Below the pieces are notes generated by a model that was not told the origin of the DNA, did not search any database, and saw only the letters and a program-made list of their open reading frames with translations. Made by a program: the position numbers and the translations under genes. 21,656 nt of DNA from a virus. Every line of letters begins with the position of its first letter. Within the stretch, counting starts at the first letter, position 1. Below are positions 941 through 18,234 of this stretch, piece after piece. Location of the stretch: positions 1 through 21,656 of IMG/VR virus record IMGVR_UViG_3300035698_009691; one strand, written 5' to 3'.

Positions 941-2638
941 ATGGCTGAGAGTTTGCATGAGGTTCAGGATAGGCGGAAGCTGGGGTTCTTTGGGAAGGCG
1001 GTTGCGGCGGTATCGCCGAGGTTTGCTTTGCAGCGGATGATGGCGACTGAGGCTTTGCATGAGTTCAGCGCGGTAAAGCGCGGCGGTGCGCGGGGGCGGC
1101 CAGCGAGTTTGTTTGACCAGGGTGGGTCTGAGACTTGGAAGAAGCAGCGGGAGCGGATCGATGCGATGATGGAGGGGCGGGAGATGGAGGAAAATTTCTG
1201 TCTGATCGCGGGTCTGCTTCAAAAGCTGGGGATCTATATTTGCGGGCAGCTTGAGTATCAGCCGGAGACGGGTGATGCGAAGGCGGACCAGGAGTATGCG
1301 GAGTTTTTCCATGATTGGTGCGGGCGTGCGGATATTACGGGACGGCACCGGTTCCGGACGATGGTGCAGCTTGGCCTATCGAGCGCGATCCGGGATGGGG
1401 AGCATGGCTGGGTGGAGCATATCGAGAAGGGTGAGCTGCGGCTCCAGGCGATCGAGGGAGACCGGATTGGGAATCCTCAGAATCCGAATACGGCGGATGA
1501 GAAGGACATTGCGGGGATCAAGATCGATGAGCGCGGGAAGGTGACGGGCTACGATATTTACAAGCGGACGAGGCAGACGAGTTACTCGAAGGAGGGCGAG
1601 GTAAAGCCGACGGAGTTTATCCACCTATTTTTCCCGAACCGGACCGACCAGTATCACGGGGTATCGAAGCTGGCCCCTGCCCTGCCGCATGCGCGGGATA
1701 TGTATGAGCTGCTGGGGCATGAGAAGATTGCGAGCAAGTTCGCGGCGTCGTTCTCGGCGTTCATCCGGACGAAGGATGTGGGTGCGCCGGGAAGCGGGCA
1801 ATGGGAGGATGCGCCATCGGGTAGCGGACTACCGGCGATGATGAAGGCGCAGGCCGGAGCGGTGGTTAAAGTGGAGACGGGTGTGGAGGATATTGATTTC
1901 GCGCCGGGATCGCAGCGGCCGACGGGTGCGTTCATGGCGCTTTGGGAGGCACTGATCCGTGAGATCGCGCTGGCGCTGAATCTGCCGTATGGTTTTGTGT
2001 ATAATATGGCGAGCTTCGGCGGGGTTACGGCGCGGCTGGAGACTCAGGCGGCGCAGCGGGTTTTCCGTTGGTATCAGGAAATGCTCGAGCACATTCTTTT
2101 GAACCGGGTGAAGCGCAAGGTGCTGATGCTGGGGATTGCGGCGGGTAAGATCAAGGCGGTTAAGAATTGGGATAGGGGTAGCTGGAGATATGGGGCGACT
2201 CTGACGGGCGATGTGGGCCACCAGGTGCAGGCGGATCTTGATCTGGTAGCTGCGGGTGCGAAGACGATGAGCCAGGTGGCGGCGGAGTATAATAACGACA
2301 TCCGCCAGGTGCTGGATAAGACTTCATCTGAGATCCAATACGCGATGCAGGTGAGCAAGCGCGATGGGGTGCCGATGGAGCTGCTGATGACGCGCCTGCA
2401 GAATCCTACGGCGCTGATCGCGGCGATGGAGCGGGCGAAGACGGGAGCGCCGGATCCGGACGCCCCTCCCCCGCAGCCGGGGCTGGTGGGATCGCTGGGC
2501 GATAAGGGTGTGAAAGGGCTGCTGGATGTGATCATGGCTGTGAACAAGGGTGAGATGGATAGGGATAGTGGGATCAATACGGCGATGACGGTTTATGGGA
2601 TGGAGTATATGAATGCGGCGGCGCTGTTTCCGAAATAA
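941..2638 (+). CDS. Phage portal protein, lambda gpB type
   Basis: Portal proteins form the dodecameric ring at one capsid vertex through which DNA is packaged and ejected; they bind the terminase and the head-tail connectors. This 565-residue product has the lambda-type layout. An N-terminal region carries R-R-K-L-G-F-F. The segment around residues 231-245 (FFPNRTDQYHGVSKLAPAL) matches the family's R-x-x-Q-x-x-G-V-S-x-L-A pattern. At about 310-385 a stem/crown-like block has D-F-A-P-G-S-Q-R-P, then L-W-E-A-L-I-R-E-I-A-x-A-L-N-L-P-Y and G-G-V-T-A-R-L-E. Lambda gpB (533 aa) has the equivalent 'P-N-x-P-x-x-x-F...L-G-x-x-Y...N-Y-S-S-A-R' region. An upstream in-frame ATG at 887 would put the hairpin and TGACA motif inside the gene, so 941 is preferred. 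The C-terminus after residue 500 is Pro/Gly-rich and variable. Confidence 0.93.
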   Translation: MAESLHEVQDRRKLGFFGKAVAAVSPRFALQRMMATEALHEFSAVKRGGARGRPASLFDQGGSETWKKQRERIDAMMEGREMEENFCLIAGLLQKLGIYICGQLEYQPETGDAKADQEYAEFFHDWCGRADITGRHRFRTMVQLGLSSAIRDGEHGWVEHIEKGELRLQAIEGDRIGNPQNPNTADEKDIAGIKIDERGKVTGYDIYKRTRQTSYSKEGEVKPTEFIHLFFPNRTDQYHGVSKLAPALPHARDMYELLGHEKIASKFAASFSAFIRTKDVGAPGSGQWEDAPSGSGLPAMMKAQAGAVVKVETGVEDIDFAPGSQRPTGAFMALWEALIREIALALNLPYGFVYNMASFGGVTARLETQAAQRVFRWYQEMLEHILLNRVKRKVLMLGIAAGKIKAVKNWDRGSWRYGATLTGDVGHQVQADLDLVAAGAKTMSQVAAEYNNDIRQVLDKTSSEIQYAMQVSKRDGVPMELLMTRLQNPTALIAAMERAKTGAPDPDAPPPQPGLVGSLGDKGVKGLLDVIMAVNKGEMDRDSGINTAMTVYGMEYMNAAALFPK

Positions 2639-2753
2639 AGACTTGGGTGCTTGGGTTGCTGGATTTTTAACCACGAATTGCACGAATTGACACGAATAAG
2701 ACTTGGGTTGGGGGAAGGGGTTGGAAACGCCCTTCTCCATAAAAAATAAGAGT
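2639..2753 (+). repeat. Intergenic composite repeat region
   Basis: A mosaic of short elements found elsewhere in the window. GACTTGGGT occurs twice. A degenerate ACCACGAATTGCACGAATT arm at 2671 is related to the inverted repeat at 17253. GGGGTTGGAAACGCCCTTCT at 2717 is related to the 34-bp element at 7867 and 18201. No TGACA start motif precedes the next gene here. Confidence 0.6.
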
Positions 2754-3062: not shown

Positions 3063-5717
3063 ATGGGAAAAGTCGCTGGGAAATTTATCGGGAAGGTTAA
3101 GAAGAAGCTGGGACAGAAGCTGGGTCAGTTGGCGGATACCCGGCTGGGTAAGCAGGTGAAGAAGATCCCTGCGCCGATCCGGAAGGGCTGGCTGACTGGG
3201 GCGATGGTGCCGGTGCCAGGTGCGGCTACTGCCGGTGCTTTGGCGGGGACTGGTGTGTGGGCGAAGGGCGCGATCGAGGGCGCGGTGCGGAGGCGGACTG
3301 GTGCGCCTTACCGGATGTTTGAAGATTTTCAAGAAAACGATATGAAGCACGAATTCACGATGATGAGTCCGGCGAGAGAGATTCTCGGCGAGGGGTTGTT
3401 TGGGGCGCTGGTGGCACCCTTACGTAAGGGCGGGGCTCTGATCGAGCTGGCGCGGATGACGGATGAGGAGGACATTGCGAAGGATAGGCGGAATTTGAAG
3501 CGGATTGCGATTGGCGGCGGTGTGCTGGCGGGTGTGGGTGCGGGGGTGATCCGTGCCGGTCGGATGAAATCGCCGGGGCTGGTGCGGGTGAAGAAAGGTT
3601 TGCCGGAGTTCGTCGAGCGTCTGACGAAGAAGAAGGTGAAGGGGCCTGTCCGGTTCCGTGTGGATGGCTCGCCGGAGGTGAGTAGGCGTGCGCGGCAGTT
3701 GAAGAACAAGGGAATCATCACTCCTGGGGAGGCGCATGGGCTGGAGGAAAAATTCAACTCTCAACATTCAACATTCAATGAAGAGAAGAGGGATAGGCTT
3801 TCGAAGGCGCGGGATATGGCGATTATCGGCGGGACTGGTGCGGTGGGTGCTGGGGCGCTGTATGGGGCGAGCAAGATTTCGGGGGTGGCTAAAAATGCCA
3901 ACGCGACGATTGATAAGGTTGGCGCGATTGCCGAGCGGACGGCGCGGCGGGTGCGCACGGAGGTGACTCCGGGGAACATCGCGGCGGAGGGCGGGAAGCT
4001 GGTGAAGAAGAAGGTGAAGGATACGGCGAAGCGGTTCTTTCCTACTTTCACGAAGATCGGGAAGCGGATGGTGAAGCATTTTGAGACACCGGCGCAGGGG
4101 GTGATTGATTTTGATTATAAGAAAAAACATAAGGCAAAGACGGTGGCTGATATGAATAGGGAAGAGAAAGAGCTGCGCATACGGAGGAGAAGAGGAGAGT
4201 TTGGGACACCGGCGCAGGCGCTGGGGGTGATTGATTTTGCGGAGGTGGCGGATGCTCCTAAGAGGGCGGTGCTTGATAAGAAGCGCAGGTTCGAGGATCA
4301 TTACAAGGTGGCGGCGGGCTTGCGGAAAGGCTATGATAGCGCGGGTAATCGCCAGGATGTGGCGATCGGTGATCAGGCTTCGTTGCGGAGTGCTTACTCA
4401 AAAGCGAAGGGGATCCAGAAGTGGGGAGGCCGTGGTGGGCGAATGGCGAAGGATGCTGCGGATGTGGTGATTGGCAAGCCGAGGGGGCGTGATGGGAGCG
4501 GGCGCAAGAAGAAGCGTGAGTGGGAGAAGTCCTGGGCGAAGACGGCGGGGACCAATGCCGCGCTTGCGACGGGTGTGGTGGGCTACGGTGTGCTGGCGAA
4601 GAAGAACCGGACGGTGCGCAAGCTGCACCAGGCGGGGGTGCGTAAGGCGACGCTTGGGAAGCGGGCTTTGATGAAGGCGCTGAATAATTTCTCGACTCCG
4701 GCCTCGCGGATTTTGGAGGCGAAGGTTGTGACGATGCATGATTTCAAAAAAAAAGAGGATAACTCGGCGGCGCGGCGTGCGGCGATTGGAGTTGGCGCGG
4801 TGGGAGCGGCGACTGGTGCGGTGGCCGGGGCTGTGAGCTCTGCGAGCTCGAAGACGGCGGATGATTTTCTTAAAGTGAGGAAGGCCCGGGATATGGTTGG
4901 GGCTGGTGGCTCTGAGCCGTTTGGCAAGGGGCGGTTCACTCCTAAAGAGCGGCTGGCGCGGGCGACTCATAACTCGGCGCGGAAGTTCCGTCGGACGGTG
5001 GGCAAGCGTGCGGTTGGCGGCGGACTGGTCGGCGCGGCGCTGGCGGGTGGGGTGACTTATGCGGCGACGCGGAAGAAGAATGATTTCCAGACTCCGGCGA
5101 GTGGGTTGATTGATTTTGCAGCTAAGGAGGATGATTTTGTCCCTAATGAAAAATTGATTGCTATTGATCGGGCTAGTAAGCGTGCAGAAAAAGGTGACTA
5201 TCGCGGTTTGTTTAAGCCTGAAATTCAAGACGGAATCAGTGATGTATATTCTCGAAGCAAAAAGGGATTTTTGCCATTTGGGAAAAAAGCGAAAATCAGA
5301 AAGCAGGCGAAGCGTGAGGTGAAGTGGTTGAAGACAGGTTTCCAGACTCCGGCGCGGGAGATGTTGGAGTTTGACTCGATTGCGAATGAGGCTGGCTGGG
5401 ATGTGCGGGATCCGCGCGGGAAGTCTGTGCGGGTGTTCGCTCCGGGAAGTCGCTCGCGGGAGCGGCGTGAGAAGCGCTGGCATGAGAAAGCGGAGAATGA
5501 GCGGAAGCTTTGGAAGGGCGGAGTTGTCGGCGCGGGTGTGGTGGCGGGTATAGGTGGCTTGGTGGCTGGGAAGAAGCTGGGGGGGGCGAAGGATCTTCCA
5601 GGTGGTCCGAAAGTTGCTAAAGTTCCGAAGGCTCCTAAAGTGCCGGCTGTGGGGCGGATGGTGAAGAAGGCGAAGGTTCGCGGGAGCGGGCTGGTGAGGG
5701 CTTTTCGGAAGGTCTAA
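3063..5717 (+). CDS. Modular basic/glycine-zipper protein with six F-x-T-P-A repeats
   Basis: I recognise no family. The 884 residues are extremely Lys/Arg-rich. At least seven short glycine-zipper hydrophobic segments lie at about residues 50-75, 148-166 (IAIGGGVLAGVGAGVI), 252-270, 500-513, 573-594, 650-668 and 820-837. A short motif recurs at Ser102-Pro-Ala and Thr342, Thr382, Thr545, Thr677 and Thr762-Pro-Ala. It usually reads F-x-T-P-A-x(2-4)-[IL]-[ILM]-[DE]-F, followed by acidic then basic residues. The protein therefore looks like several units of motif, charged linker and membrane-seeking helix joined end to end. Its place between portal and prohead protease suggests a virion protein, perhaps packaged in the head and ejected with the DNA, or a polyprotein cut during maturation. 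Both ideas are inference. One module carries an in-frame TACGTA palindrome (3417-3430) and another a degenerate TTCAAC repeat (3752-3779). The stop codon lies within a GGTCGGAA repeat. Confidence 0.8.
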   Translation: MGKVAGKFIGKVKKKLGQKLGQLADTRLGKQVKKIPAPIRKGWLTGAMVPVPGAATAGALAGTGVWAKGAIEGAVRRRTGAPYRMFEDFQENDMKHEFTMMSPAREILGEGLFGALVAPLRKGGALIELARMTDEEDIAKDRRNLKRIAIGGGVLAGVGAGVIRAGRMKSPGLVRVKKGLPEFVERLTKKKVKGPVRFRVDGSPEVSRRARQLKNKGIITPGEAHGLEEKFNSQHSTFNEEKRDRLSKARDMAIIGGTGAVGAGALYGASKISGVAKNANATIDKVGAIAERTARRVRTEVTPGNIAAEGGKLVKKKVKDTAKRFFPTFTKIGKRMVKHFETPAQGVIDFDYKKKHKAKTVADMNREEKELRIRRRRGEFGTPAQALGVIDFAEVADAPKRAVLDKKRRFEDHYKVAAGLRKGYDSAGNRQDVAIGDQASLRSAYSKAKGIQKWGGRGGRMAKDAADVVIGKPRGRDGSGRKKKREWEKSWAKTAGTNAALATGVVGYGVLAKKNRTVRKLHQAGVRKATLGKRALMKALNNFSTPASRILEAKVVTMHDFKKKEDNSAARRAAIGVGAVGAATGAVAGAVSSASSKTADDFLKVRKARDMVGAGGSEPFGKGRFTPKERLARATHNSARKFRRTVGKRAVGGGLVGAALAGGVTYAATRKKNDFQTPASGLIDFAAKEDDFVPNEKLIAIDRASKRAEKGDYRGLFKPEIQDGISDVYSRSKKGFLPFGKKAKIRKQAKREVKWLKTGFQTPAREMLEFDSIANEAGWDVRDPRGKSVRVFAPGSRSRERREKRWHEKAENERKLWKGGVVGAGVVAGIGGLVAGKKLGGAKDLPGGPKVAKVPKAPKVPAVGRMVKKAKVRGSGLVRAFRKV
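3417..3430. repeat. TACGTA palindrome, copy 2 (inside a gene)
   Basis: CCCTTACGTAAGGG, read in frame as Pro-Leu-Arg-Lys-Gly at about residues 119-123 of the 884-aa protein. It lies within the first S-P-A module and appears to interrupt it. Confidence 0.75.
3752..3779 (+). repeat. Degenerate TTCAAC heptamer repeat inside a gene
   Basis: ATTCAACTCTCAACATTCAA-type units, related to the array at 16250-16312 but in frame here, coding for a Phe/Asn/Ser/His-rich patch in an otherwise Lys/Gly-rich protein. The contrast suggests a repeat inserted into the gene. Confidence 0.5.
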
Positions 5718-5823
5718 GGTCGGAAGGTCGGAAGACTCGGCTTGACCGGAGCGAAGCGACTCTTTCTTGTGACTTTGACTTTTGACTTGTGACTTTTAGA
5801 CTTTCGACGGAGCAAAGCTCGGG
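5713..5823 (+). repeat. Intergenic repeat region with GGTCGGAA units
   Basis: GGTC(T/GG)AA units run across the stop codon of the upstream gene. They are followed by GACTC, a GGAGCGAAGCGACT segment, several T-rich GACTTTTGACTTGTGACTT units and CGACGGAGCAAAGC. The same components recur at 15814-15931. Confidence 0.65.
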
Positions 5824-5831
5824 TTGACATG
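5824..5831 (+). promoter_or_regulatory. TGACA start-associated motif (4)
   Basis: TTGACATG, 18 bases (from the T of TGACA) before the start at 5843. Confidence 0.5.
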
Positions 5832-5842
5832 GGGTGGATGGC

Positions 5843-6598
5843 ATGTCGAACGCACGTGTTTCCCACCTTCATGAATTATCCGCCCGAATTGATGCCCATC
5901 TTCACCAGTTTATGGATGAGGAGACTCCGTATTATTCCAAGTATCCAATCGTGGCGAAGGAGCACCGCAAGTCTCCGGCTGCGAGGTTGGGGAAAGTGGC
6001 TGTTGCCGGTGGCGCGGTTGTCGGTGGTTCGATGGCTTATGATTCGCTTAAAAAGCGGATGCCTGCGATTAAGGCGGGGGCTAAGGATGCGGCTTTTACG
6101 GGGACGAGGAAAGTTGCTGCGGGGATGAACTCCGTGGGGAATAAGCTTGTTCCGCGAAAAAGGGGTGTAGGGGATGCTATCGTGGGCGGTGCGGTTGAGA
6201 AGGTCGGCAAAGGCTTGAAGAAGGGTTCCAGACGGCTACGTAAGGCTTCGATGCGGTTTTTTGAGGATGGCGCGGCTGATCATGAGTTTGGAAGTGCTTC
6301 TCTTCGTCGAATGGGTCGTGTAGGGGATGGTGTTGCGAAGAAGGCATTTAAAGGCGGGACCACGGATTCTTATGATAAGGCTGACGATTTACTTAAAAGA
6401 CTGCGGATGAAGTATTCGTCGAAAACCGCAGCATCAGGAAATCGGAGAGCAAAATCCGGTGTGAACTCTTACGATAAGCTCGTTTCAGAAAGTTCGCAGA
6501 GGAGAGTAGGTGCGAAGATCGGAATTCGCGCGAAGCAGGAGTTTTCCGCTCTCGCTGAGCGTCTGGTGAATCTGGAGGTTAAGCTCCAGTCGATTTAA
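5843..6598 (+). CDS. Basic glycine-zipper protein, paralogous style to the 884-aa protein
   Basis: No family recognised. The 251-residue product has three parts reminiscent of its larger neighbour. An N-terminal motif H-E-L-S-A-R-I-D-A-H-L-H-Q-F at residues 9-22 is followed by an acidic patch. A glycine-zipper helix lies at about 49-69 (KVAVAGGAVVGGSMAYDSL). A long Lys/Arg/Gly-rich stretch is interrupted near residue 140 by F-F-E-D-G-A-A-D-H-E-F-G-S-A-S-L. The C-terminus repeats the motif as F-S-A-L-A-E-R-L-V-N-L-E. The start at 5843 is fixed by the TTGACA motif 18 bases upstream; an in-frame GTG at 5834 would add three residues. Position and composition suggest that it works with the flanking 884- and 412-aa proteins in the virion. 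That is inference only. Confidence 0.75.
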   Translation: MSNARVSHLHELSARIDAHLHQFMDEETPYYSKYPIVAKEHRKSPAARLGKVAVAGGAVVGGSMAYDSLKKRMPAIKAGAKDAAFTGTRKVAAGMNSVGNKLVPRKRGVGDAIVGGAVEKVGKGLKKGSRRLRKASMRFFEDGAADHEFGSASLRRMGRVGDGVAKKAFKGGTTDSYDKADDLLKRLRMKYSSKTAASGNRRAKSGVNSYDKLVSESSQRRVGAKIGIRAKQEFSALAERLVNLEVKLQSI

Positions 6599-6616
6599 AT
6601 TTTTTCAAACGTAGTA

Positions 6617-7855
6617 GTGAAAGAGACGCAGAAGAAGCATTTGAAGCCGGGTGTCTATCATGGTGCTAGGCCGGTGCGGTCGCTGCCGATTTTCAACCAT
6701 GAATACACGGTGGTGGTGCCGAAGCATAAGGATAGGCTGGACAAGAATCTGAGGCGCAAGATGCGCACGGTGAACGGCCAGCGGGTTCTGGTGAGCGGGG
6801 CTTACAAGACTAATGGATGGCTCAAAGGAAAGCTGGCAGATCCGGTGGATGTGGCTGCGCTGAAAAACAGCGCGGACAAGCTGCGGCTGGTAAGCGATAA
6901 AGGCTCCACGGCGGCGGCGAAAAATGCGGCTGCGGACAACAAGAAATTCAAGAAGATCAAGTATCCCGGTTTCTTGGGAAACCTACTAGGCAAGGACCCG
7001 AATTCTAACTCGTATGCGAGATCACAAATCGAAAAGTTAACCAAAAAGAAGATGAACAAAAACGAAGGATTTGCACGGACACCAGGCGGCAAGCTGCGGG
7101 TGGAGCTATCGGCAATCACGGAGCTTACGGCGAGGATTGATGCGCGGCTGCAGGAGTTTGCGGAGATCCCGCTGCGGGAGGGGGCGGATGGTGAAGGGTA
7201 TTATGGATGGGGCCCGCGCATTGAGGTTTCCCGGCGTGATAATCCGGCGCTCCACAAGCTGCCGAACGCGGGGAAGGCTTGTATCAACTATCGGGTCAAA
7301 CGAAAGACGGTGGATATTGATCGCGATGGTAAGGAAAGCTACGGGACAGATATCGAGGTGGATACCATCGAGGCGCTGCCGGATGCTCCGATGGAGCTGA
7401 GTGCGATTCTGGATTCTTATGATTTCGCGGCGACGGCGGTGGGTGAGGTTTATCCTTCGGCGAAGAAGCTCCTCGGTGATCCGATTGTGCGTGATCAGGT
7501 TTTGGTTCGGCGCGGTAGGCTTGGAAAAAATTCGCTTGTGCCAAACGGTAAGTTGGCGCGTAAGAAGGCTGTTGGTGCTTTGAAGCATGCGCGGAAGGCT
7601 CTCGGGCTCAGAGGATTTTCCGCGATTGTGGATTCTTATGATTTCGAGGGGCGGGCGCGTGATGGTGGGGGGCGTTATGCACCCGGGCAGAATGTGAGCG
7701 CGGGGGAGATGGCGGATGCTTACCTGACGAAGAAGAAGGTGAAGACGGCGGCGGTGATTGGCGGCGGTGCGGGGCTGGCGACTGCGGCGGTGCTGGGGCG
7801 GAAGAAGCTTTCGCCGAGGATCGGGCAGGCGATTGGGCGGATGGTGATGCGGTGA
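6617..7855 (+). CDS. Minor virion protein candidate with L-S-A-x-I-D motifs and C-terminal glycine zipper
   Basis: The 412-residue product is read from GTG at 6617, the first start after the preceding stop, with only 18 bases between. It has no TGACA motif and no clear ribosome-binding site. Residues 1-70 form a compact basic segment containing N-H-E-Y-T-V-V-V-P. About 70-160 is Lys/Ala-rich. The motif appears three times: L-T-A-R-I-D-A-R-L-Q-E-F (about 168-180), L-S-A-I-L-D-S-Y-D-F (about 260-270) and F-S-A-I-V-D-S-Y-D-F (about 334-343). Between the first two is a beta-rich segment (C-I-N-Y-R-V-K-R-K-T-V-D-I-D...E-V-D-T-I-E). The last motif runs into R-D-G-G-G-R-Y-A-P-G, a form often seen in phage structural proteins. 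A glycine-zipper helix lies near residues 379-397. The function is unknown. It is probably a virion protein, given its location just before the prohead protease. Confidence 0.75.
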   Translation: MKETQKKHLKPGVYHGARPVRSLPIFNHEYTVVVPKHKDRLDKNLRRKMRTVNGQRVLVSGAYKTNGWLKGKLADPVDVAALKNSADKLRLVSDKGSTAAAKNAAADNKKFKKIKYPGFLGNLLGKDPNSNSYARSQIEKLTKKKMNKNEGFARTPGGKLRVELSAITELTARIDARLQEFAEIPLREGADGEGYYGWGPRIEVSRRDNPALHKLPNAGKACINYRVKRKTVDIDRDGKESYGTDIEVDTIEALPDAPMELSAILDSYDFAATAVGEVYPSAKKLLGDPIVRDQVLVRRGRLGKNSLVPNGKLARKKAVGALKHARKALGLRGFSAIVDSYDFEGRARDGGGRYAPGQNVSAGEMADAYLTKKKVKTAAVIGGGAGLATAAVLGRKKLSPRIGQAIGRMVMR

Positions 7856-7866
7856 ATTTTTAAGAG

Positions 7867-7900
7867 CTTGGGTTCTGCTAGGGGTTGGAAACACCCTTCT
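7867..7900 (+). repeat. 34-bp duplicated intergenic element, copy 1
   Basis: Identical over 34 bases to 18201-18234 (begins CTTGGGTTCTGCTAGGGG). It contains an imperfect hairpin AGGGGTT/AACACCCT. A diverged relative is at 2700-2738. Confidence 0.8.
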
Positions 7901-8035: not shown

Positions 8036-8049
8036 GAGGGTTGGGGGTT

Positions 8050-9240
8050 ATGTTGAACCAACTTATTGAATTTGAAGTGACGGCGCTCGATGGGGAGCTG
8101 GATCGTGAAGCGGGAATTATTCGCGGGGTATCGGTGATTACCGGTAATGTGCGTGCGAAGGGGCACAACCTGGAGGTGGATGGGGTGACGCTCTCCCAGA
8201 TGCATGCGCTGGGGGTGAAGAAGGGGAAGGTGCCGGTGAAGTGGAATCATAAAACCGGAGCGGATGCGGTGAATGGTTTCTTTACGAGCTTCCGGATCGA
8301 GGGGACCAAGCTGAAGGCGGACTGGCATTTGCTCCGCAGTCACCCGCAATACAATCACGCGCTGGAGCTGGCGGAGCGGATGCCGGAGAATGTGGGATTC
8401 TCGGCGAGCTTCATGGGTCTGAGCGAGCTGGCGGATGGGACTAAGGTATTTAATCCGGATGCGGAGACGAAGACGCATTACACGCTGATGGGCAAGAAGC
8501 GTGTGGCGGTGCCGGCGACGGAGAAGATTTTCGCGAGGTGCCAGGATCTGGTTTCGGTGGATCTGGTGGCGAGCCCTGCGGCGAATCCCGACGGGATGTT
8601 CGAGGCGGGGGCGGTTGACAGCGACGGGGATGATATGGCTACACCAGTAAAGCCGGGAGCAAAACCCGAAGAAGAAAATACCGTGGACTTCAACGCCTTC
8701 GTAACTGAACAGCGTGAGTTCAATTCCAACGTCGCCGCTCTTTTGCAACGCTTCAGCGAAGCGGATGAAGAAGAGGAGGAAATCGAAGAGGAAGAAGAGC
8801 AAGAAGAAGTTGATGCTTCCGAGTTAAGCTCTCTTGCCGATGTGGTTCAGCATTTTGAAGCGCGCATCGCGAAGATGGGTGCCGATAGGGAGCACCAGGA
8901 GTTCGAGGCCGCGCATGTGGAGCTCGATGATAAGATCTCCGATCTGGAGGAGTTCAATGCGCAGTTGCTCAATGAGAACCAGATTCTTGCGGAGGCTTAT
9001 AAGGAGCTTTCGAGCAAGACCAAGCACAGCGTCGATTTCTCGGCCGGTGCGGATGGCGGGCGTAAGGCTTCGGTTTCCAAGGTTGGTGCGGCTCCGAGGA
9101 CGGAGTTTGAGGCGCGTTGCGTGGAGCTTCAAGGCGAAGGCAAGTCTGCTGCCGAGGCGATGCTTTTCGCGGTGAACGAGGATACCGAGCGTTACACCAC
9201 TCACCTTGAGGCGAAGGGAGCGCTCGCTCAAACCCTCTGA
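8050..9240 (+). CDS. Prohead protease fused to capsid scaffold
   Basis: The 396-residue product joins a maturation protease of the HK97/herpesvirus-assemblin serine-protease type to a scaffolding domain. The protease cuts scaffold and itself inside the prohead before DNA entry. Catalytic-type residues are visible: His67 in V-K-W-N-H and Ser118 in G-F-S-A-S-F. They are followed by the family signature L-V-S-V-D-L-V-A-S-P-A-A-N-P. Residues from about 196 form the scaffold: a polar linker, a Glu-rich run near 240-255 and a long coiled coil (about 275-320). The C-terminus ends with T-H-L-E-A-K-G-A-L-A-Q-T-L. An upstream in-frame TTG at 8041 is possible, but ATG at 8050 fits the TGACA spacing. Protease-scaffold fusions are common in phages, and lambda makes a separate scaffold (Nu3) from inside gene C. 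The next entry gives evidence for the same arrangement here. Confidence 0.9.
   Translation: MLNQLIEFEVTALDGELDREAGIIRGVSVITGNVRAKGHNLEVDGVTLSQMHALGVKKGKVPVKWNHKTGADAVNGFFTSFRIEGTKLKADWHLLRSHPQYNHALELAERMPENVGFSASFMGLSELADGTKVFNPDAETKTHYTLMGKKRVAVPATEKIFARCQDLVSVDLVASPAANPDGMFEAGAVDSDGDDMATPVKPGAKPEEENTVDFNAFVTEQREFNSNVAALLQRFSEADEEEEEIEEEEEQEEVDASELSSLADVVQHFEARIAKMGADREHQEFEAAHVELDDKISDLEEFNAQLLNENQILAEAYKELSSKTKHSVDFSAGADGGRKASVSKVGAAPRTEFEARCVELQGEGKSAAEAMLFAVNEDTERYTTHLEAKGALAQTL
8615..8622 (+). promoter_or_regulatory. TGACA start-associated motif (6), inside the protease gene
   Basis: TTGACAGC, 19 bases (from the T of TGACA) before the in-frame ATG at 8635, with a G-rich spacer like those of the real gene starts. 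Confidence 0.5.
8635..9240 (+). CDS. Probable separately translated scaffold protein (internal start)
   Basis: An internal in-frame ATG (MATPVKPGAKPEEEN) would give a 201-residue scaffold lacking the protease. Three things support it. A TGACA motif with a G-rich spacer lies 19 bases upstream, as at other starts. The codon and base composition changes at this point from very G-rich to the balanced, C-ending codons of the capsid genes. The domain boundary between protease and coiled-coil scaffold falls here. The product would resemble lambda Nu3, which is needed in many more copies than the protease. It is not an independent gene but a nested product of the same frame. Confidence 0.55.
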   Translation: MATPVKPGAKPEEENTVDFNAFVTEQREFNSNVAALLQRFSEADEEEEEIEEEEEQEEVDASELSSLADVVQHFEARIAKMGADREHQEFEAAHVELDDKISDLEEFNAQLLNENQILAEAYKELSSKTKHSVDFSAGADGGRKASVSKVGAAPRTEFEARCVELQGEGKSAAEAMLFAVNEDTERYTTHLEAKGALAQTL

Positions 9241-9280: not shown

Positions 9281-9643
9281 ATGAACACTGAAAACGTAGT
9301 ATCCCTGGAAGCAGTCTCCGCACTTGCTCCTTTCCTCCGCGTGAAGATGACGGCAGCAGGTCTTGACCTGGCAGGGCCGAATGACCGCGCAATCGGGATC
9401 ACCCTTCCGGGCGATCTGAACCGCACTTACCCATCCGTGCAGGTTATCGGCATGTATGCCGAGGCTGTCCTTGGCAATGGCACGGACGTTGTCCGGGGCG
9501 ATGAGCTTGAGGCCGGTGCCGCTGGCGTGCTGGTGAAGAAGACCGCAGGAGTCGGCATCGCTGTGGCGGTGACCGGAGCCACTGAAGCGGGTGACCACTT
9601 TGATGTGATGTACTTCCGCGATCCGATCCCAACCGCCGTCTAA
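9281..9643 (+). CDS. Capsid decoration protein (gpD-like position)
   Basis: The 120-residue, Ala/Gly/Val-rich beta protein has no long helices. After an N-terminal arm (MNTENVVSLEAVS) it shows alternating hydrophobic strands, with G-L-D-L-A-G-P-N-D-R-A-I-G in the first third and G-A-A-G-V-L-V-K-K-T-A-G near residues 78-89. Small beta proteins with this composition between scaffold and major capsid genes are head-stabilising decoration proteins. Lambda gpD (110 aa) sits in the same place and binds capsid threefold sites after expansion. The leader shares CAACATCTA and ACACAAT with the next gene's leader, so the two may be controlled together and made in similar amounts. The call rests on composition, size and synteny. 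Confidence 0.7.
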   Translation: MNTENVVSLEAVSALAPFLRVKMTAAGLDLAGPNDRAIGITLPGDLNRTYPSVQVIGMYAEAVLGNGTDVVRGDELEAGAAGVLVKKTAGVGIAVAVTGATEAGDHFDVMYFRDPIPTAV

Positions 9644-9686: not shown

Positions 9687-10664
9687 ATGTATTCACTACA
9701 AGCAGTTTCCCGTCCTGAGATTTCCGCCTTCCTTGAGCAGGGGCGTCAGGCTCACGAGCACTACATCGGCACCAAGCTTCTCCCGGTTTACGGGGTGGGC
9801 GCACGGGCTGGGCGCTATCCGAAGACGTTGCTCGCTACGAGCAATTCGATGAAGCGCGAGCAAACCAAGCGTTCTTCGAGCGGTTCGTATAACGAGACCA
9901 GCTCGCAACACACGTGGGACACCTACGATTGCGAAGATCGCGGTCTTGAGGAGCGCATCGACGATACTAAGGCGGCGGAGATGAAAAGCTTCTTCGATCT
10001 GGAGAAGATCACGGCAGCCAACGTGACCCGCAAGTGCGAGCTTGAGTTCGAGGTCAATGCGGCATCGCTGATCATGAGCGAGACGAACTTTGGTAAGACC
10101 GACGCAGTTGTCGCCTACACCGAAACGAACATCGATACGATCGATCTTCCGCAGGACATGAACGCAGCCATCGAGCTGGTCACCGGCCGTGGTGAAGGGG
10201 TCAATACGATTGTGTTCTCCTCGATCCTCTGGAATCGTGTGCGCCGCTCTACTCTTCTTCAGTCTTACCTTTACGGTAAGATCGGCGGAGACGTGAACAA
10301 GCGCCTGATCACCACTAAGGATCTTCAGGAAGCCTTTGCGCTGGACATGGACGGTATGAAGCTGTCGGTGCACATCGCCAGGGCGAAGTATGACGCGGCT
10401 CCGAAAGGACGCGCTACTACTTCCCTTCTGCCGATCTGGGGGAATGATTACGTCTGGGTGGGTGATGTGAAGGAAGGCGACTTCTCCAACGGTGGTGCAG
10501 GCCGCACGCTGGTCTGGGAAGCGGACGTTCCTTCCGGTCTCTACGCCACTGAGACCTATCGCAACGAAGGTCGCCGCTCGGACATGGTCCGTGTGCGCAC
10601 CAACTCGATTGAGAAGCTGGTGAACGCGAATGCGGGGCAGCTGATCAAGACGAACTTTTCCTGA
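9687..10664 (+). CDS. Major capsid protein, lambda gpE type
   Basis: The 325-residue product lies immediately after the decoration gene, as E follows D in lambda (gpE is 341 aa). The sequence fits the HK97 fold in the gpE subfamily. It has an N-terminal arm and a loop-like region rich in Ser/Thr/Arg near residues 50-75. A spine-like helix region follows (E-E-R-I-D-D-T-K-A-A-E...A-A-N-V-T-R-K-C-E-L-E-F-E). A central A-domain segment has N-T-I-V-F-S-S-I-L-W-N-R-V-R, then D-L-Q-E-A-F-A-L-D. The C-terminal strands include W-G-N-D-Y-V-W-V and E-A-D-V-P-S-G-L-Y-A-T-E-T-Y. Codons are well balanced and C-ending, unlike the G-rich genes around it, as expected for the most abundant protein. A strong terminator follows directly. 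Confidence 0.85.
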   Translation: MYSLQAVSRPEISAFLEQGRQAHEHYIGTKLLPVYGVGARAGRYPKTLLATSNSMKREQTKRSSSGSYNETSSQHTWDTYDCEDRGLEERIDDTKAAEMKSFFDLEKITAANVTRKCELEFEVNAASLIMSETNFGKTDAVVAYTETNIDTIDLPQDMNAAIELVTGRGEGVNTIVFSSILWNRVRRSTLLQSYLYGKIGGDVNKRLITTKDLQEAFALDMDGMKLSVHIARAKYDAAPKGRATTSLLPIWGNDYVWVGDVKEGDFSNGGAGRTLVWEADVPSGLYATETYRNEGRRSDMVRVRTNSIEKLVNANAGQLIKTNFS

Positions 10665-13278: not shown

Positions 13279-13767
13279 ATGAAAACACACCACCTAATCA
13301 CCACATCCCCCCTCGCCTTCGCCACCGAGTCGCCTGATGGTGTGCATCCGATCGCCCGCGCGGTTGGAAATCCTGCCGCGTTTTCCGCGCCTGATGGCTA
13401 TGCTTATATACCGGATGTTGCCCCTCCAACTTATGATTCGGAAGCTCAAACCATAGAACGAAATCTCACCCTCAAAGGTTATGGATGGGTAGTCCGCGAG
13501 CTGACTGCCGAAGACCTCGCCGCACGACAACCCACTTTAGAGCAACAACTCACCACCGCCCGCTCAAGCATGTCAGAGCTGATTTACACTCTGCCTGTGG
13601 CTGCCCGCGCTAAATTCGCCACCGCCCGGGCCGGGGTCGAGAAGCTGCTGGACCTGGGCGACATCGCAGCGGCCCACTACGCGCTAGGGGAGATCGCTGC
13701 CGATACCGAAGCCGAACAAAATGTGAAGCTAATTTTGCTCACCGCCCTTAACGGATTTCTGCCATGA
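13279..13767 (+). CDS. Fibre-associated protein, possible tail-fibre assembly chaperone
   Basis: The 162-residue protein has a proline-rich first half containing A-T-E-S-P-D-G-V-H-P and G-Y-A-Y-I-P-D. Residues 72-90 (G-Y-G-W-V-V-R-E-L-T-A-E-D-L-A-A-R-Q-P) lead to a long helical second half. The order of short beta strands, then 'W-x-x-R-x-L-T-x-E-D', then helices is typical of tail-fibre assembly proteins, which help fibres trimerise and often follow fibre genes. It starts three bases after the tip protein. Its stop overlaps the next start (ATGA at 13764-13767). The chaperone role is inferred from position and layout; a small structural protein is the alternative. Confidence 0.55.
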   Translation: MKTHHLITTSPLAFATESPDGVHPIARAVGNPAAFSAPDGYAYIPDVAPPTYDSEAQTIERNLTLKGYGWVVRELTAEDLAARQPTLEQQLTTARSSMSELIYTLPVAARAKFATARAGVEKLLDLGDIAAAHYALGEIAADTEAEQNVKLILLTALNGFLP

Positions 13768-14336
13768 AATACCTAGCCGCCATCCTCTGTCTTTCTCTCG
13801 CAGCGTGCGCTCCAAAGGCGGTCATCGTTGATCCTATCGCCCCTGCGGTTGCAACGGCGCGGGCGGATGTTGCGGCGGCTGGGACAGCATCAAAGCGGGT
13901 TCATGCAGGCGTCTCCGATGTAGCAAAGCAGGTCAAGGATGTAGGCAAAGGCATCAATGATGCGCTCGCCCATGCCGCCGCCCAGCGCACCGCAGGCCCC
14001 GATTCAAAGGAGTGGCAAGAGCAATGGGAAATTCTAACGGCAGTCCGCACTCGTAACCTGTTCGCGGAAGCCTCAGCCGATGGAACGATGAAGTATTCGA
14101 TTGCTGCGCAGGCTCTCCAGAAAACCGCTGACAAGGGCATGGTAAGCCTAGAAACAACTGCAAAGGCGCAGGATATAGGAGTTGAGAAAATCAAGATCCA
14201 CATGGCCAAGCAAGCCGACAATGCCGCCCTTGGAAAAGGCGTGAAAACCTTGATCTGGGCGGGTGTTATTTTCGGCTTCGTCCTGCTTGTCATTTTCGTC
14301 GTCGCAAAGTTAGCAAAAAAAACAGTCATCCCATGA
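13764..14336 (+). CDS. Lipoprotein with C-terminal membrane helix: unimolecular spanin candidate
   Basis: The 190-residue product has a lipoprotein signal (MKYLAAILCLSLAAC) with lipobox L-A-A-C, and Cys15 as the lipidated residue. A long Ala/Lys-rich helical region at about 28-150 is predicted to lie in the periplasm. A strong hydrophobic helix at about 163-181 (TLIWAGVIFGFVLLVIFVV) is followed by a basic tail, K-L-A-K-K. An outer-membrane lipid anchor plus a C-terminal inner-membrane anchor in one chain is the diagnostic layout of u-spanins (phage T1 gp11), which fuse the two membranes at the last step of lysis. Immediate neighbours are membrane peptides and an endolysin. It overlaps its neighbours by four bases on both sides, so expression is coupled. 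A simple lipoprotein of the virion is the main alternative. Confidence 0.65.
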   Translation: MKYLAAILCLSLAACAPKAVIVDPIAPAVATARADVAAAGTASKRVHAGVSDVAKQVKDVGKGINDALAHAAAQRTAGPDSKEWQEQWEILTAVRTRNLFAEASADGTMKYSIAAQALQKTADKGMVSLETTAKAQDIGVEKIKIHMAKQADNAALGKGVKTLIWAGVIFGFVLLVIFVVAKLAKKTVIP

Positions 14337-14637: not shown

Positions 14638-15255
14638 ATGAAAACTCCGCAACTGCCCGAAAAGGACATCCGCGCAATCGTTGCAGCCAACGGCGTTCCT
14701 GCCAACGAGGTTTCGGTCGTGGCCATCCGGGGTTACTATCTCGATTCGATGGGTAAGCCAGGTAATAATGATCGCCAGATTTATGATGACGCGATGTTCA
14801 TCGTGACGCCATCGGACATACTCCGCTTCCGAGCGAACACCGATCCCAACGGCTACCGGAAAGGCCACGGCACCGGATCAAAGAAAGGCATGGCGATGCT
14901 GAAAACCGGCATCCACCTCTACGGCACAGGTAAGCACAAGGGGAGACTGGCCTTTCGCCAGTGCGAGTCGTTCACGGTTATCCGCGATGGCAACCCTCCA
15001 TACGAGGACACTGGGATGCACGCGATCAATCTGCATAGCGGAGGCTACAATTCCACGTCTTCCCTCGGCTGTCAGACCATACCCAAATCAACATGGCCTG
15101 ACTTCCAGCCGCGTCTCTATGCTCTTCTTGAGAGGTATGACAACCCGCTCAGAAAAAACGACTGGGGAGCAATCGTGCCGAGCTTCAACTACATCCTGAT
15201 AGATGAGATCGAAAGGCGCAAAGGCAACCTGGTAACCTCCCACCGCTACCTGTAA
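14638..15255 (+). CDS. Endolysin candidate with an L,D-transpeptidase-like Cys/His site
   Basis: The 205-residue soluble protein has no signal peptide. The key region is residues 126-150: G-M-H-A-I-N-L-H-S-G-G-Y, then S-S-L-G-C-Q-T-I-P. His128 or His133 and Cys145 in an S-x-G-C context resemble the YkuD-type L,D-transpeptidase active site (H...[ST]-H-G-C), although the residue before Gly is Leu instead of His. Phage proteins with this H...S-x-G-C-Q-T-I-P pattern occur in lysis cassettes, so I infer that it cuts peptidoglycan peptide bonds. Further support is its place between a u-spanin candidate and holin candidates. With no signal sequence it would need a holin for release. No lysozyme, amidase or NlpC motif is present. 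Confidence 0.65.
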   Translation: MKTPQLPEKDIRAIVAANGVPANEVSVVAIRGYYLDSMGKPGNNDRQIYDDAMFIVTPSDILRFRANTDPNGYRKGHGTGSKKGMAMLKTGIHLYGTGKHKGRLAFRQCESFTVIRDGNPPYEDTGMHAINLHSGGYNSTSSLGCQTIPKSTWPDFQPRLYALLERYDNPLRKNDWGAIVPSFNYILIDEIERRKGNLVTSHRYL

Positions 15256-18200: not shown

Positions 18201-18234
18201 CTTGGGTTCTGCTAGGGGTTGGAAACACCCTTCT
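18201..18234 (+). repeat. 34-bp duplicated intergenic element, copy 2
   Basis: Identical over 34 bases to 7867-7900, about 10 kb away. In both cases a structural gene follows, with a GTGACATG motif in between. Confidence 0.8.

What the first reader, a model, noticed from the sequence alone, without database searches (positions are those of the whole stretch)
3063..7855. 4.8-kb block of unrecognised basic, glycine-zipper virion-like proteins between portal and protease
Three neighbouring proteins (884, 251 and 412 aa) share one architecture: short [FL]-x-[TS]-(P)-A...[IL]-[DE]-F motifs, Lys/Arg-rich linkers and hydrophobic glycine-zipper helices. Lambda-type phages normally have little between portal and protease. 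I infer head-packaged, membrane-active ejection proteins or a processed polyprotein. The layout is seen directly; the function is not known.
Basis: partly seen in the sequence, partly recalled or inferred. Interest (0 to 1): 0.82.

Follow-up and report, generated by a model that had tools for sequence, protein, structure and literature searches.

The report
Modular cargo proteins beside phage portal
Between the portal and head-protease genes of this virus of Verrucomicrobiota bacteria lie three lysine/arginine-rich, membrane-helix proteins built from interchangeable pieces; related viruses carry enzyme domains in the same place, so they are most likely cargo that is packed in the virus head, probably cut up by the head protease, and injected into the host with the DNA.

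Summary
The window is a virus fragment with lambda-type portal, three block ORFs (884/892, 251/254, 412 aa), an HK97-type protease fused to a scaffold-like half, a decoration-type protein and a major capsid protein. All three block proteins are basic, have glycine-rich hydrophobic helices and carry short [F/L]-(x)-[S/T]-(P)-A motifs; the 892-aa protein has 5 FxTPA copies (0 of 20,000 shuffles reach 5). Pfam, PHROGs and 50,697 phage records hold no clear relative. Uncultivated phages and Verrucomicrobiota MAGs do: a ~65-aa C-terminal module (WDxRDPRGRSARVFAPGSR...) recurs in 34 proteins of 286-1870 aa, between portal and protease wherever the fragment shows those genes. In relatives these proteins carry swappable domains (inorganic pyrophosphatase, ligase-like, LRAT-like); a domain of the window's 412-aa protein sits inside the big protein in two relatives. 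FSA and LSA are the two most over-represented tripeptides in the C-terminal half of the protease fusion; [charged][FL]SA is enriched in cargo and absent from capsid protein. At internal module starts [FLM]SA stands where stand-alone paralogues have their initiator Met, suggesting proteolytic processing. Best reading: polyvalent-type, head-packaged, probably protease-processed cargo/ejection proteins. Packaging, cleavage and membrane activity remain untested.

The parts
3063..5717 (+). 892/884-aa modular basic protein (GTG 3039 or ATG 3063 start)
   Evidence: relatives; no Pfam match, PHROG 0.046 only
4080..4112 (+). motif copy FETPAQGVIDF (residue 348)
4200..4238 (+). motif copy FGTPAQALGVIDF (residue 388)
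4410..4601 (+). conserved module 1: helix + RDGSGRKKKREWEKSW + hydrophobic helix (about residues 458-521)
4689..4721 (+). motif copy FSTPASRILEA (residue 551)
5085..5117 (+). motif copy FQTPASGLIDF (residue 683)
5340..5372 (+). motif copy FQTPAREMLEF (residue 768), directly upstream of module 2; in distant relatives FSAKLRxLREFD stands at this position
5388..5579 (+). conserved module 2 (universal C-terminal module): WDVRDPRGKSVRVFAPGSRSRERREKRWHEKAENERKLWK + glycine-rich hydrophobic helix (residues 784-847)
5843..6598 (+). 251-aa tagged basic protein
5861..5911 (+). N-terminal tag SHLHELSARIDAHLHQF, the top hit of the tag profile (which was trained on it among 17 tags)
6542..6550 (+). FSA site near the C-terminus (QEFSA-LAERL)
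6617..7855 (+). 412-aa protein: cassette domain + [FL]SA sites + a second conserved domain + RDGGGRYAPG module + hydrophobic helix
6632..7105 (+). cassette domain (conserved FxHEY...NSNSYAR; residues 6-163), found inside the large protein in L007 and L008
   Evidence: fold unresolved
7106..7168 (+). LSA-ITELTARIDARLQEFAEI: internal copy of the tag
7178..7375 (+). conserved domain (GKAxIxYxVxxxxV...DIE...I), residues 188-253, called 'beta' here from its sequence pattern only
7397..7405 (+). LSA site (MELSA-ILDSYDF)
7616..7624 (+). FSA site (GFSA-IVDSYDF)
8041..9240 (+). HK97-type prohead protease (N-terminal half) fused to an acidic, coiled-coil, scaffold-like half
9037..9045 (+). FSA site in the scaffold-like half (VDFSA-GADGG), conserved in position in relatives
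1064..1072 (+). FSA in the N-terminal part of the portal (HEFSA-VKRGG)

Best explanation
The block encodes modular cargo proteins of the phage head: the verrucomicrobial-phage version of head-packaged ejection/polyvalent proteins. Proposed steps. (1) Short [F/L]-(x)-[S/T]-(P)-A-x-x-[L/I]-x-x-F elements and N-terminal LxELSARxD helices bring the proteins into the prohead, by contact with the scaffold-like half of the protease fusion, which carries similar sequence (inferred). (2) The HK97-type prohead protease cuts after the [FL]SA / FxTPA sequences, freeing itself from the scaffold half and dividing the cargo into segments of one soluble or basic part plus a glycine-rich membrane helix (inferred). 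(3) The basic segments sit with the packaged DNA and leave with it; the helices insert in the host envelope and either form a passage or anchor and deliver the soluble domains (inferred). (4) In relatives the soluble domains are enzymes that could act on the newly infected cell; in this window the only recognisable cassette is the NSNSYA domain of the 412-aa protein. Shown: architecture, gene-order conservation, cassette mobility, motif enrichment and position. Inferred: packaging, cleavage, ejection, membrane insertion.
For: Order portal - module-2 protein - other ORFs - protease - MCP in about 30 loci as far as each fragment reaches. Module 2 in 33 viral loci and 34 non-identical proteins of 286-1870 aa, near the C-terminus in nearly all (L010 is an exception). 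The N-terminal parts vary and hold enzyme-like domains: InPase PF18823 (7.5e-45 in L019, 3.8e-51 in L064), LRAT (1.6e-5, above cut-off, L034), ligase OB (2.8e-5 and 6.9e-5, below cut-off, L045, L052). The InPase domain is described in phage polyvalent proteins thought to be packaged and injected (PMC5512222). The cassette of the 412-aa protein is inside the big protein of L007 and L008. The neighbouring protease aligns with the HK97 gp4 family over 151 columns, E=3.7e-4, with the His and Ser aligned. FSA (15 seen, 1.0 expected) and LSA (18, 3.1) are the top two tripeptides in the C-terminal halves of 16 protease fusions; [charged][FL]SA 23 vs 2.0 in proteases, 19 vs 3.0 in slot proteins, 0 in 12 MCPs. 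Of 13 internal copies of the [NKD]-[LI]-K-x-x-L-x-E-[LF] tag start listed, 11 are preceded directly by [FLM]SA; at true N-termini the preceding residue is usually Met. A motif lies within 40 aa upstream of module 2 in 16 of 28 proteins, 2.7 expected, FxTPA in one clade and FSAKL in the other at the same position. N-terminal tag in 11 of 45 slot ORFs vs 2 of 153 others, p=1.6e-6.
Against: No protein of this family has been seen in a virion. No recognised enzyme domain in the window's own three proteins. FxTPA itself is absent from protease and MCP, so its equivalence to [FL]SA rests on position. [FL]SA was noticed before it was counted, and related sequences inflate counts; ORFs of unassigned position also show some excess (12 vs 4.1). 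AlphaFold models are weak (mean pLDDT 51 and 60) and Foldseek found nothing. The N-terminal tag could be only a docking helix, not a cleavage site.
Confidence: 0.58

Rival explanations
1. Pure DNA-ejection channel proteins: all three proteins form a trans-envelope conduit like T7 gp14/15/16 or P22 gp7/16/20, with no effector role; enzyme domains in relatives are wall- or envelope-acting accessories.
For: Several glycine-rich hydrophobic helices per protein and high basic charge; ejection proteins vary widely in size and are mosaic (PMC8954989).
Against: Relatives carry pyrophosphatase and ligase-like domains, which do not fit a wall-degrading or conduit role; a large downstream ORF (18264 onward, 1130 aa, open-ended) looks like a tape measure, i.e. 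a long-tailed phage that would not need such a conduit (inference).
Confidence: 0.2
2. Docking rather than cleavage: [FL]SA/FxTPA elements are scaffold- or capsid-binding helices that load cargo and are not cut. (A variant of the best explanation; the two can both be true.)
For: The motif extends downstream into a helix-like pattern (LxELAARS, LIxF) conserved beyond the SA; similar sequence in the scaffold-like half. T4 internal proteins use such a capsid targeting sequence (PMC7411985).
Against: [FLM]SA stands exactly where stand-alone paralogues have Met, as expected if a new N-terminus is made there. In T4 the targeting sequence is itself cleaved.
Confidence: 0.25
3. Structural minor head proteins (inner-surface cement or DNA condensers) that stay in the capsid and are not injected.
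For: Strong basic charge and location among head genes.
Against: Highly variable length and enzyme cassettes; membrane-type helices are unexpected in a purely structural head protein.
Confidence: 0.12
4. Membrane-active late proteins (lysis or superinfection exclusion) that are not virion parts.
For: Glycine-rich membrane-type helices.
Against: Position between portal and protease, FSA/tag sequences shared with the protease fusion, and a separate spanin-like gene elsewhere in the window (13764-14336, phrog_3268).
Confidence: 0.05
5. The repeated motif is a by-product of interspersed DNA repeats (palindromic elements inserted in genes).
For: The genome does hold short palindromic repeats, one inside the 892-aa ORF.
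Against: FxTPA copies differ in codons and are conserved as protein across divergent phages; the palindrome encodes PLRKG, not FxTPA.
Confidence: 0.02

Closest known systems
Polyvalent proteins of phages and conjugative elements (Iyer et al. 2017, PMC5512222)
   Same: Large multidomain proteins in portal-terminase phages near virion genes, with swappable unrelated domains, including the InPase domain; that paper also reports members from Verrucomicrobia elements.
   Different: A dedicated slot between portal and protease, a universal C-terminal double module with membrane-type helices, repeated [FL]SA/FxTPA motifs tied to the neighbouring protease, and no recognised enzyme in the window's own member. 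The terms 'transmembrane', 'maturation protease' and 'proteolytic processing' do not occur in that paper's main text.
T4 internal proteins IPI-III and Alt with capsid targeting sequence (described in PMC7411985)
   Same: A short N-terminal helix-like peptide on several unrelated cargo proteins, probable contact with the prohead core, probable cleavage by the prohead protease.
   Different: No sequence homology claimed; [FL]SA/FxTPA rather than the T4 gp21 cleavage motif; repeated inside large proteins, not only at N-termini; protease is HK97-type and fused to its scaffold.
SPN3US E (ejection) proteins
   Same: Head-packaged ejected proteins processed by the prohead protease after a short motif (PMC7411985).
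   Different: Giant myovirus with long propeptides; no module or motif homology was tested.
T7 gp14-16 / P22 gp7, gp16, gp20 ejection proteins (PMC8954989)
   Same: Membrane helices, mosaic composition, clustered genes.
   Different: No family-library match; probably a long-tailed phage; enzyme cassettes of a different kind.
HK97 gp4 prohead protease (compared with the neighbour, 8041-9240)
   Same: Same family by profile alignment, catalytic His and Ser in register.
   Different: Fused to a long acidic coiled-coil scaffold-like half with [FL]SA sites; no Pfam protease match.

Membership tests
Polyvalent proteins | Two or more functionally unrelated domains in one polypeptide | tested here: inconclusive
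   Window: no recognised enzyme domain; one NSNSYA cassette plus a second conserved domain in the 412-aa protein. Relative L064: InPase (Pfam 3.8e-51); ligase-like KLDGV and HESGH motifs are read by eye.
Polyvalent proteins | Encoded by a portal-terminase phage in a virion-gene context | tested here: met
   Directly between portal and protease; the terminase itself was not identified in the window.
Polyvalent proteins | Injected into the host with the DNA | not testable with these tools
   Needs infection experiments.
T4-type capsid-targeted internal proteins | Common N-terminal targeting peptide on several cargo proteins | tested here: met
   A common N-terminal peptide is present: first 40 aa of 11 of 45 slot ORFs vs 2 of 153 others, p=1.6e-6; 17-sequence profile. 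That it targets anything is not shown.
T4-type capsid-targeted internal proteins | Peptide binds the prohead core and is cleaved by the prohead protease | tested here: inconclusive
   Protease-fusion C-terminal halves score 5-10 bits with the tag profile, shuffled maximum 4.4; FSA/LSA shared; binding and cleavage not testable.
T7/P22 ejection proteins | Sequence or profile homology to gp14/15/16 or gp7/16/20 | tested here: not met
   No Pfam/PHROG match for the three block proteins; PDB sequence search done for the 412-aa protein and its cassette only, no match.
T7/P22 ejection proteins | Present in virion, lost on ejection | not testable with these tools
   No virion proteome available.
HK97-type prohead protease (gene 8041-9240) | Catalytic His and Ser in the gp4 family alignment | tested here: met
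   hhalign E=3.7e-4 (probability 36%) over 151 columns, WNH and GFSASF aligned to FNH and MSVGF.
LRAT/papain-like domain (cassette of the 412-aa protein) | H...NC signature or fold match | tested here: not met
   Cys replaced by Ser (NSNS), no profile match to LRAT-like relatives, no Foldseek match with a weak model.

The most novel reading that the evidence does not exclude
A head-gene slot in Verrucomicrobiota phages works as an interchangeable cargo bay: a polyprotein of membrane-anchored segments, each marked by an [FL]SA/FxTPA element read by the phage's own scaffold-fused protease, so that domains carried between two elements are loaded, cut free inside the head and delivered into the host.
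Probability: 0.3. Interest if true: 0.82.

Novelty: new variant of a known kind. Interest (0 to 1): 0.62.

Why it matters
It gives a family of unnamed proteins in phages of a poorly studied phylum a testable role, and a short predicted processing motif that links cargo to the neighbouring protease. If right, the loading and cleavage signals of a head-packaged protein delivery system can be read from sequence, and unknown ORFs in this slot in other uncultivated phages can be predicted to be injected proteins.

Tried and rejected
DNA-repeat origin of the motif: rejected, codons differ. Papain/LRAT-like fold for the NSNSYA cassette: suggested by eye, not supported by hhalign, AlphaFold plus Foldseek, or PDB profile search. 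Direct search for relatives of the 412-aa protein or of its cassette in viral contigs: none confirmed; relatives came through the protease and module 2. Relatives in INPHARED phages: none for the 892-aa protein, its C-terminal part or the protease; portal only at 22-26% identity in the rows listed. AlphaFold of the core module gave only helices at pLDDT 60, so no fold search was made with it. ADP-ribosyltransferase and metallopeptidase (HExxH) assignments in L004, L010, L011, L020 and L027 are by eye only; Pfam did not support them in the proteins scanned. The Pfam scan of the 'protease' gave nothing useful, so it was tested by profile comparison instead.

Full report
1. What is there. The window is a 21,656-bp virus record. 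ORFs on the + strand give a lambda-family portal (887-2638, PF05136 1.4e-38), the three block ORFs, a protease/scaffold fusion (8041-9240), a decoration-type protein (9281-9643, phrog_673) and a major capsid protein (9687-10664, phrog_1005 4e-28). The three block proteins have no Pfam match and at best a PHROG hit of E=0.046 to an unknown family. They are basic (+107, +26, +37). The 892-aa protein holds FxTPA at residues 348, 388, 551, 683 and 768; the shuffled mean is 0.05 and none of 20,000 shuffles reached 5. Codons differ between copies, so the conservation is at the protein level.

2. Relatives. No phage in a collection of 50,697 records has the 892-aa protein, its C-terminal 484 aa or the protease. 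Uncultivated viral contigs do. Three MAG contigs also carry the protease: Akkermansiaceae (L031), Verrucomicrobiales (L032, on a 250-kb contig, so probably a prophage) and Spartobacteria (L033). Among 388 genomes drawn from the phylum of L032, two have a strong match to the C-terminal module. The host group is therefore taken to be Verrucomicrobiota, by inference from these MAGs.

3. A universal module. Alignment of the big proteins shows two conserved stretches. Module 1 is RDxSGRxKKREWEKSW followed by a hydrophobic helix. Module 2 is WDxRDPRGRSARVFAPGSRxRxRREKxWHEKxENxRK followed by a glycine-rich hydrophobic helix. Module 2 is found in 34 non-identical proteins of 286-1870 aa, near the C-terminus in nearly all; in L010 the order of modules differs. 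The 286-aa L032 protein is essentially these two modules. In about 30 loci with profile hits, the order portal - module-2 protein - others - protease - MCP holds as far as each fragment reaches.

4. Cassettes. The parts outside the modules vary. Pfam finds inorganic pyrophosphatase PF18823 in L019 (7.5e-45) and L064 (3.8e-51), LRAT in L034 (1.6e-5, above cut-off), and a ligase OB domain below cut-off in L045 and L052 (2.8e-5, 6.9e-5) with a weaker signal in L029. Separate ORFs in the slot encode SRAP and an ATP-dependent DNA ligase in L034 and a metallophosphoesterase in L014. Residues 6-163 of the window's 412-aa protein form a domain (FxHEY...NSNSYAR) that lies inside the big protein of L007 (1e-86, but L007 was one of the two training sequences) and L008 (2e-37, not in training). 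It is thus a movable cassette. Its fold is unknown: AlphaFold mean pLDDT 51, no Foldseek hit. My first idea that it is papain-like was not supported.

5. The motif and the protease. The neighbour at 8041-9240 has no Pfam protease match, but its profile aligns with the HK97 gp4 family over 151 columns (E=3.7e-4, probability 36%) with WNH and GFSASF in register with FNH and MSVGF. Its C-terminal half is acidic, with coiled-coil-type weak hits, and is read here as a fused scaffold. A ranking of all tripeptides in the C-terminal halves of 16 such fusions puts FSA first (15 seen, 1.0 expected) and LSA second (18, 3.1). [Charged][FL]SA is 23 vs 2.0 in proteases, 19 vs 3.0 in slot proteins, 4 vs 1.5 in portals and 0 in 12 MCPs. 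In internal copies of the tag [NKD]-[LI]-K-x-x-L-x-E-[LF], 11 of 13 listed are preceded directly by [FLM]SA; where the tag starts a protein, Met stands there in most. Simple gene fusion would be expected to leave Met or read-through sequence, so this pattern suggests a site that restores the same N-terminus by cutting. Directly upstream of module 2, FxTPA (window clade) and FSAKL (distant clade) occupy the same position, 16 of 28 proteins against 2.7 expected. I therefore treat FxTPAxxLIxF and [FL]SAxLxxLREF as two forms of one element.

6. The tag. N-termini of slot proteins share an amphipathic-looking LxELSARxDxxLxxF (window 5861-5911). It lies in the first 40 aa of 11 of 45 slot ORFs and 2 of 153 others, p=1.6e-6. 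A profile of 17 tags also hits internal sites, ORFs downstream of the MCP, and protease-fusion C-terminal halves at 5-10 bits; the shuffled maximum is 4.4 bits.

7. Mechanism. Best explanation: cargo proteins loaded into the prohead through these elements, probably cut by the protease, and ejected with the DNA; the glycine-rich helices insert in the host envelope. Gene order, motif statistics and cassette exchange are shown; loading, cutting, ejection and membrane insertion are inferred. The closest published class is the polyvalent proteins (PMC5512222), which are proposed to be packaged and injected and include the InPase domain and Verrucomicrobia members. T4 internal proteins with a capsid targeting sequence are the closest mechanistic model (PMC7411985), and T7/P22 ejection proteins the closest for membrane helices (PMC8954989).

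8. Limits. Counts include related sequences, and [FL]SA was seen before it was counted, although the tripeptide ranking covered all tripeptides. ORFs were called by a simple longest-ORF rule. Structure predictions were weak. No virion data exist for this family here.

Noticed in passing
window 3417, 7996, 10743, 15988, 18167 (exact), 529 (1 mismatch): 14-bp perfect palindrome CCCTTACGTAAGGG, 6 sites against 0.02 expected by chance. Relatives have their own matching version (CCGTTACGTAACGG in L001/L031, CCCTTGCGCAAGGG in L004/L045/L052), often followed directly by T-ATG. Looks like a start-associated element or an operator.
   Followed up: partly
window 2716-2736, 7880-7900, 18214-18234: Repeat AGGGGTTGGAAACRCCCTTCT with inverted-repeat ends, three copies, none expected by chance.
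   Followed up: no
window 3417-3430; L045 8954; L052 3911: The palindrome also lies inside big cargo ORFs (encoding PLRKG), possibly marking former gene starts in fused cassettes.
   Followed up: no
L034 10316-12034: The slot between the module protein and the protease also holds stand-alone SRAP (5e-30) and ATP-dependent DNA ligase (1.7e-33) genes.
   Followed up: no
L014 12778-14201, L022 12680-14341, L024 12787-14222, L025 12719-14643, L026 12680-15670: A second group of tagged, glycine-zipper ORFs lies just after the MCP (or, in L024, after the protease) in several relatives, with repeated [FLM]SA-NLKPALRELAARS units.
   Followed up: partly
L014 7104-8237: A tagged slot protein has a weak glycosyltransferase-28 C-terminal match (0.0016, below cut-off).
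   Followed up: no
window 13764-14336 and 14638-15255: Spanin-like gene (phrog_3268 5e-5) and a gene of unknown family phrog_3000 (3.5e-17), possibly a lysis region.
   Followed up: no
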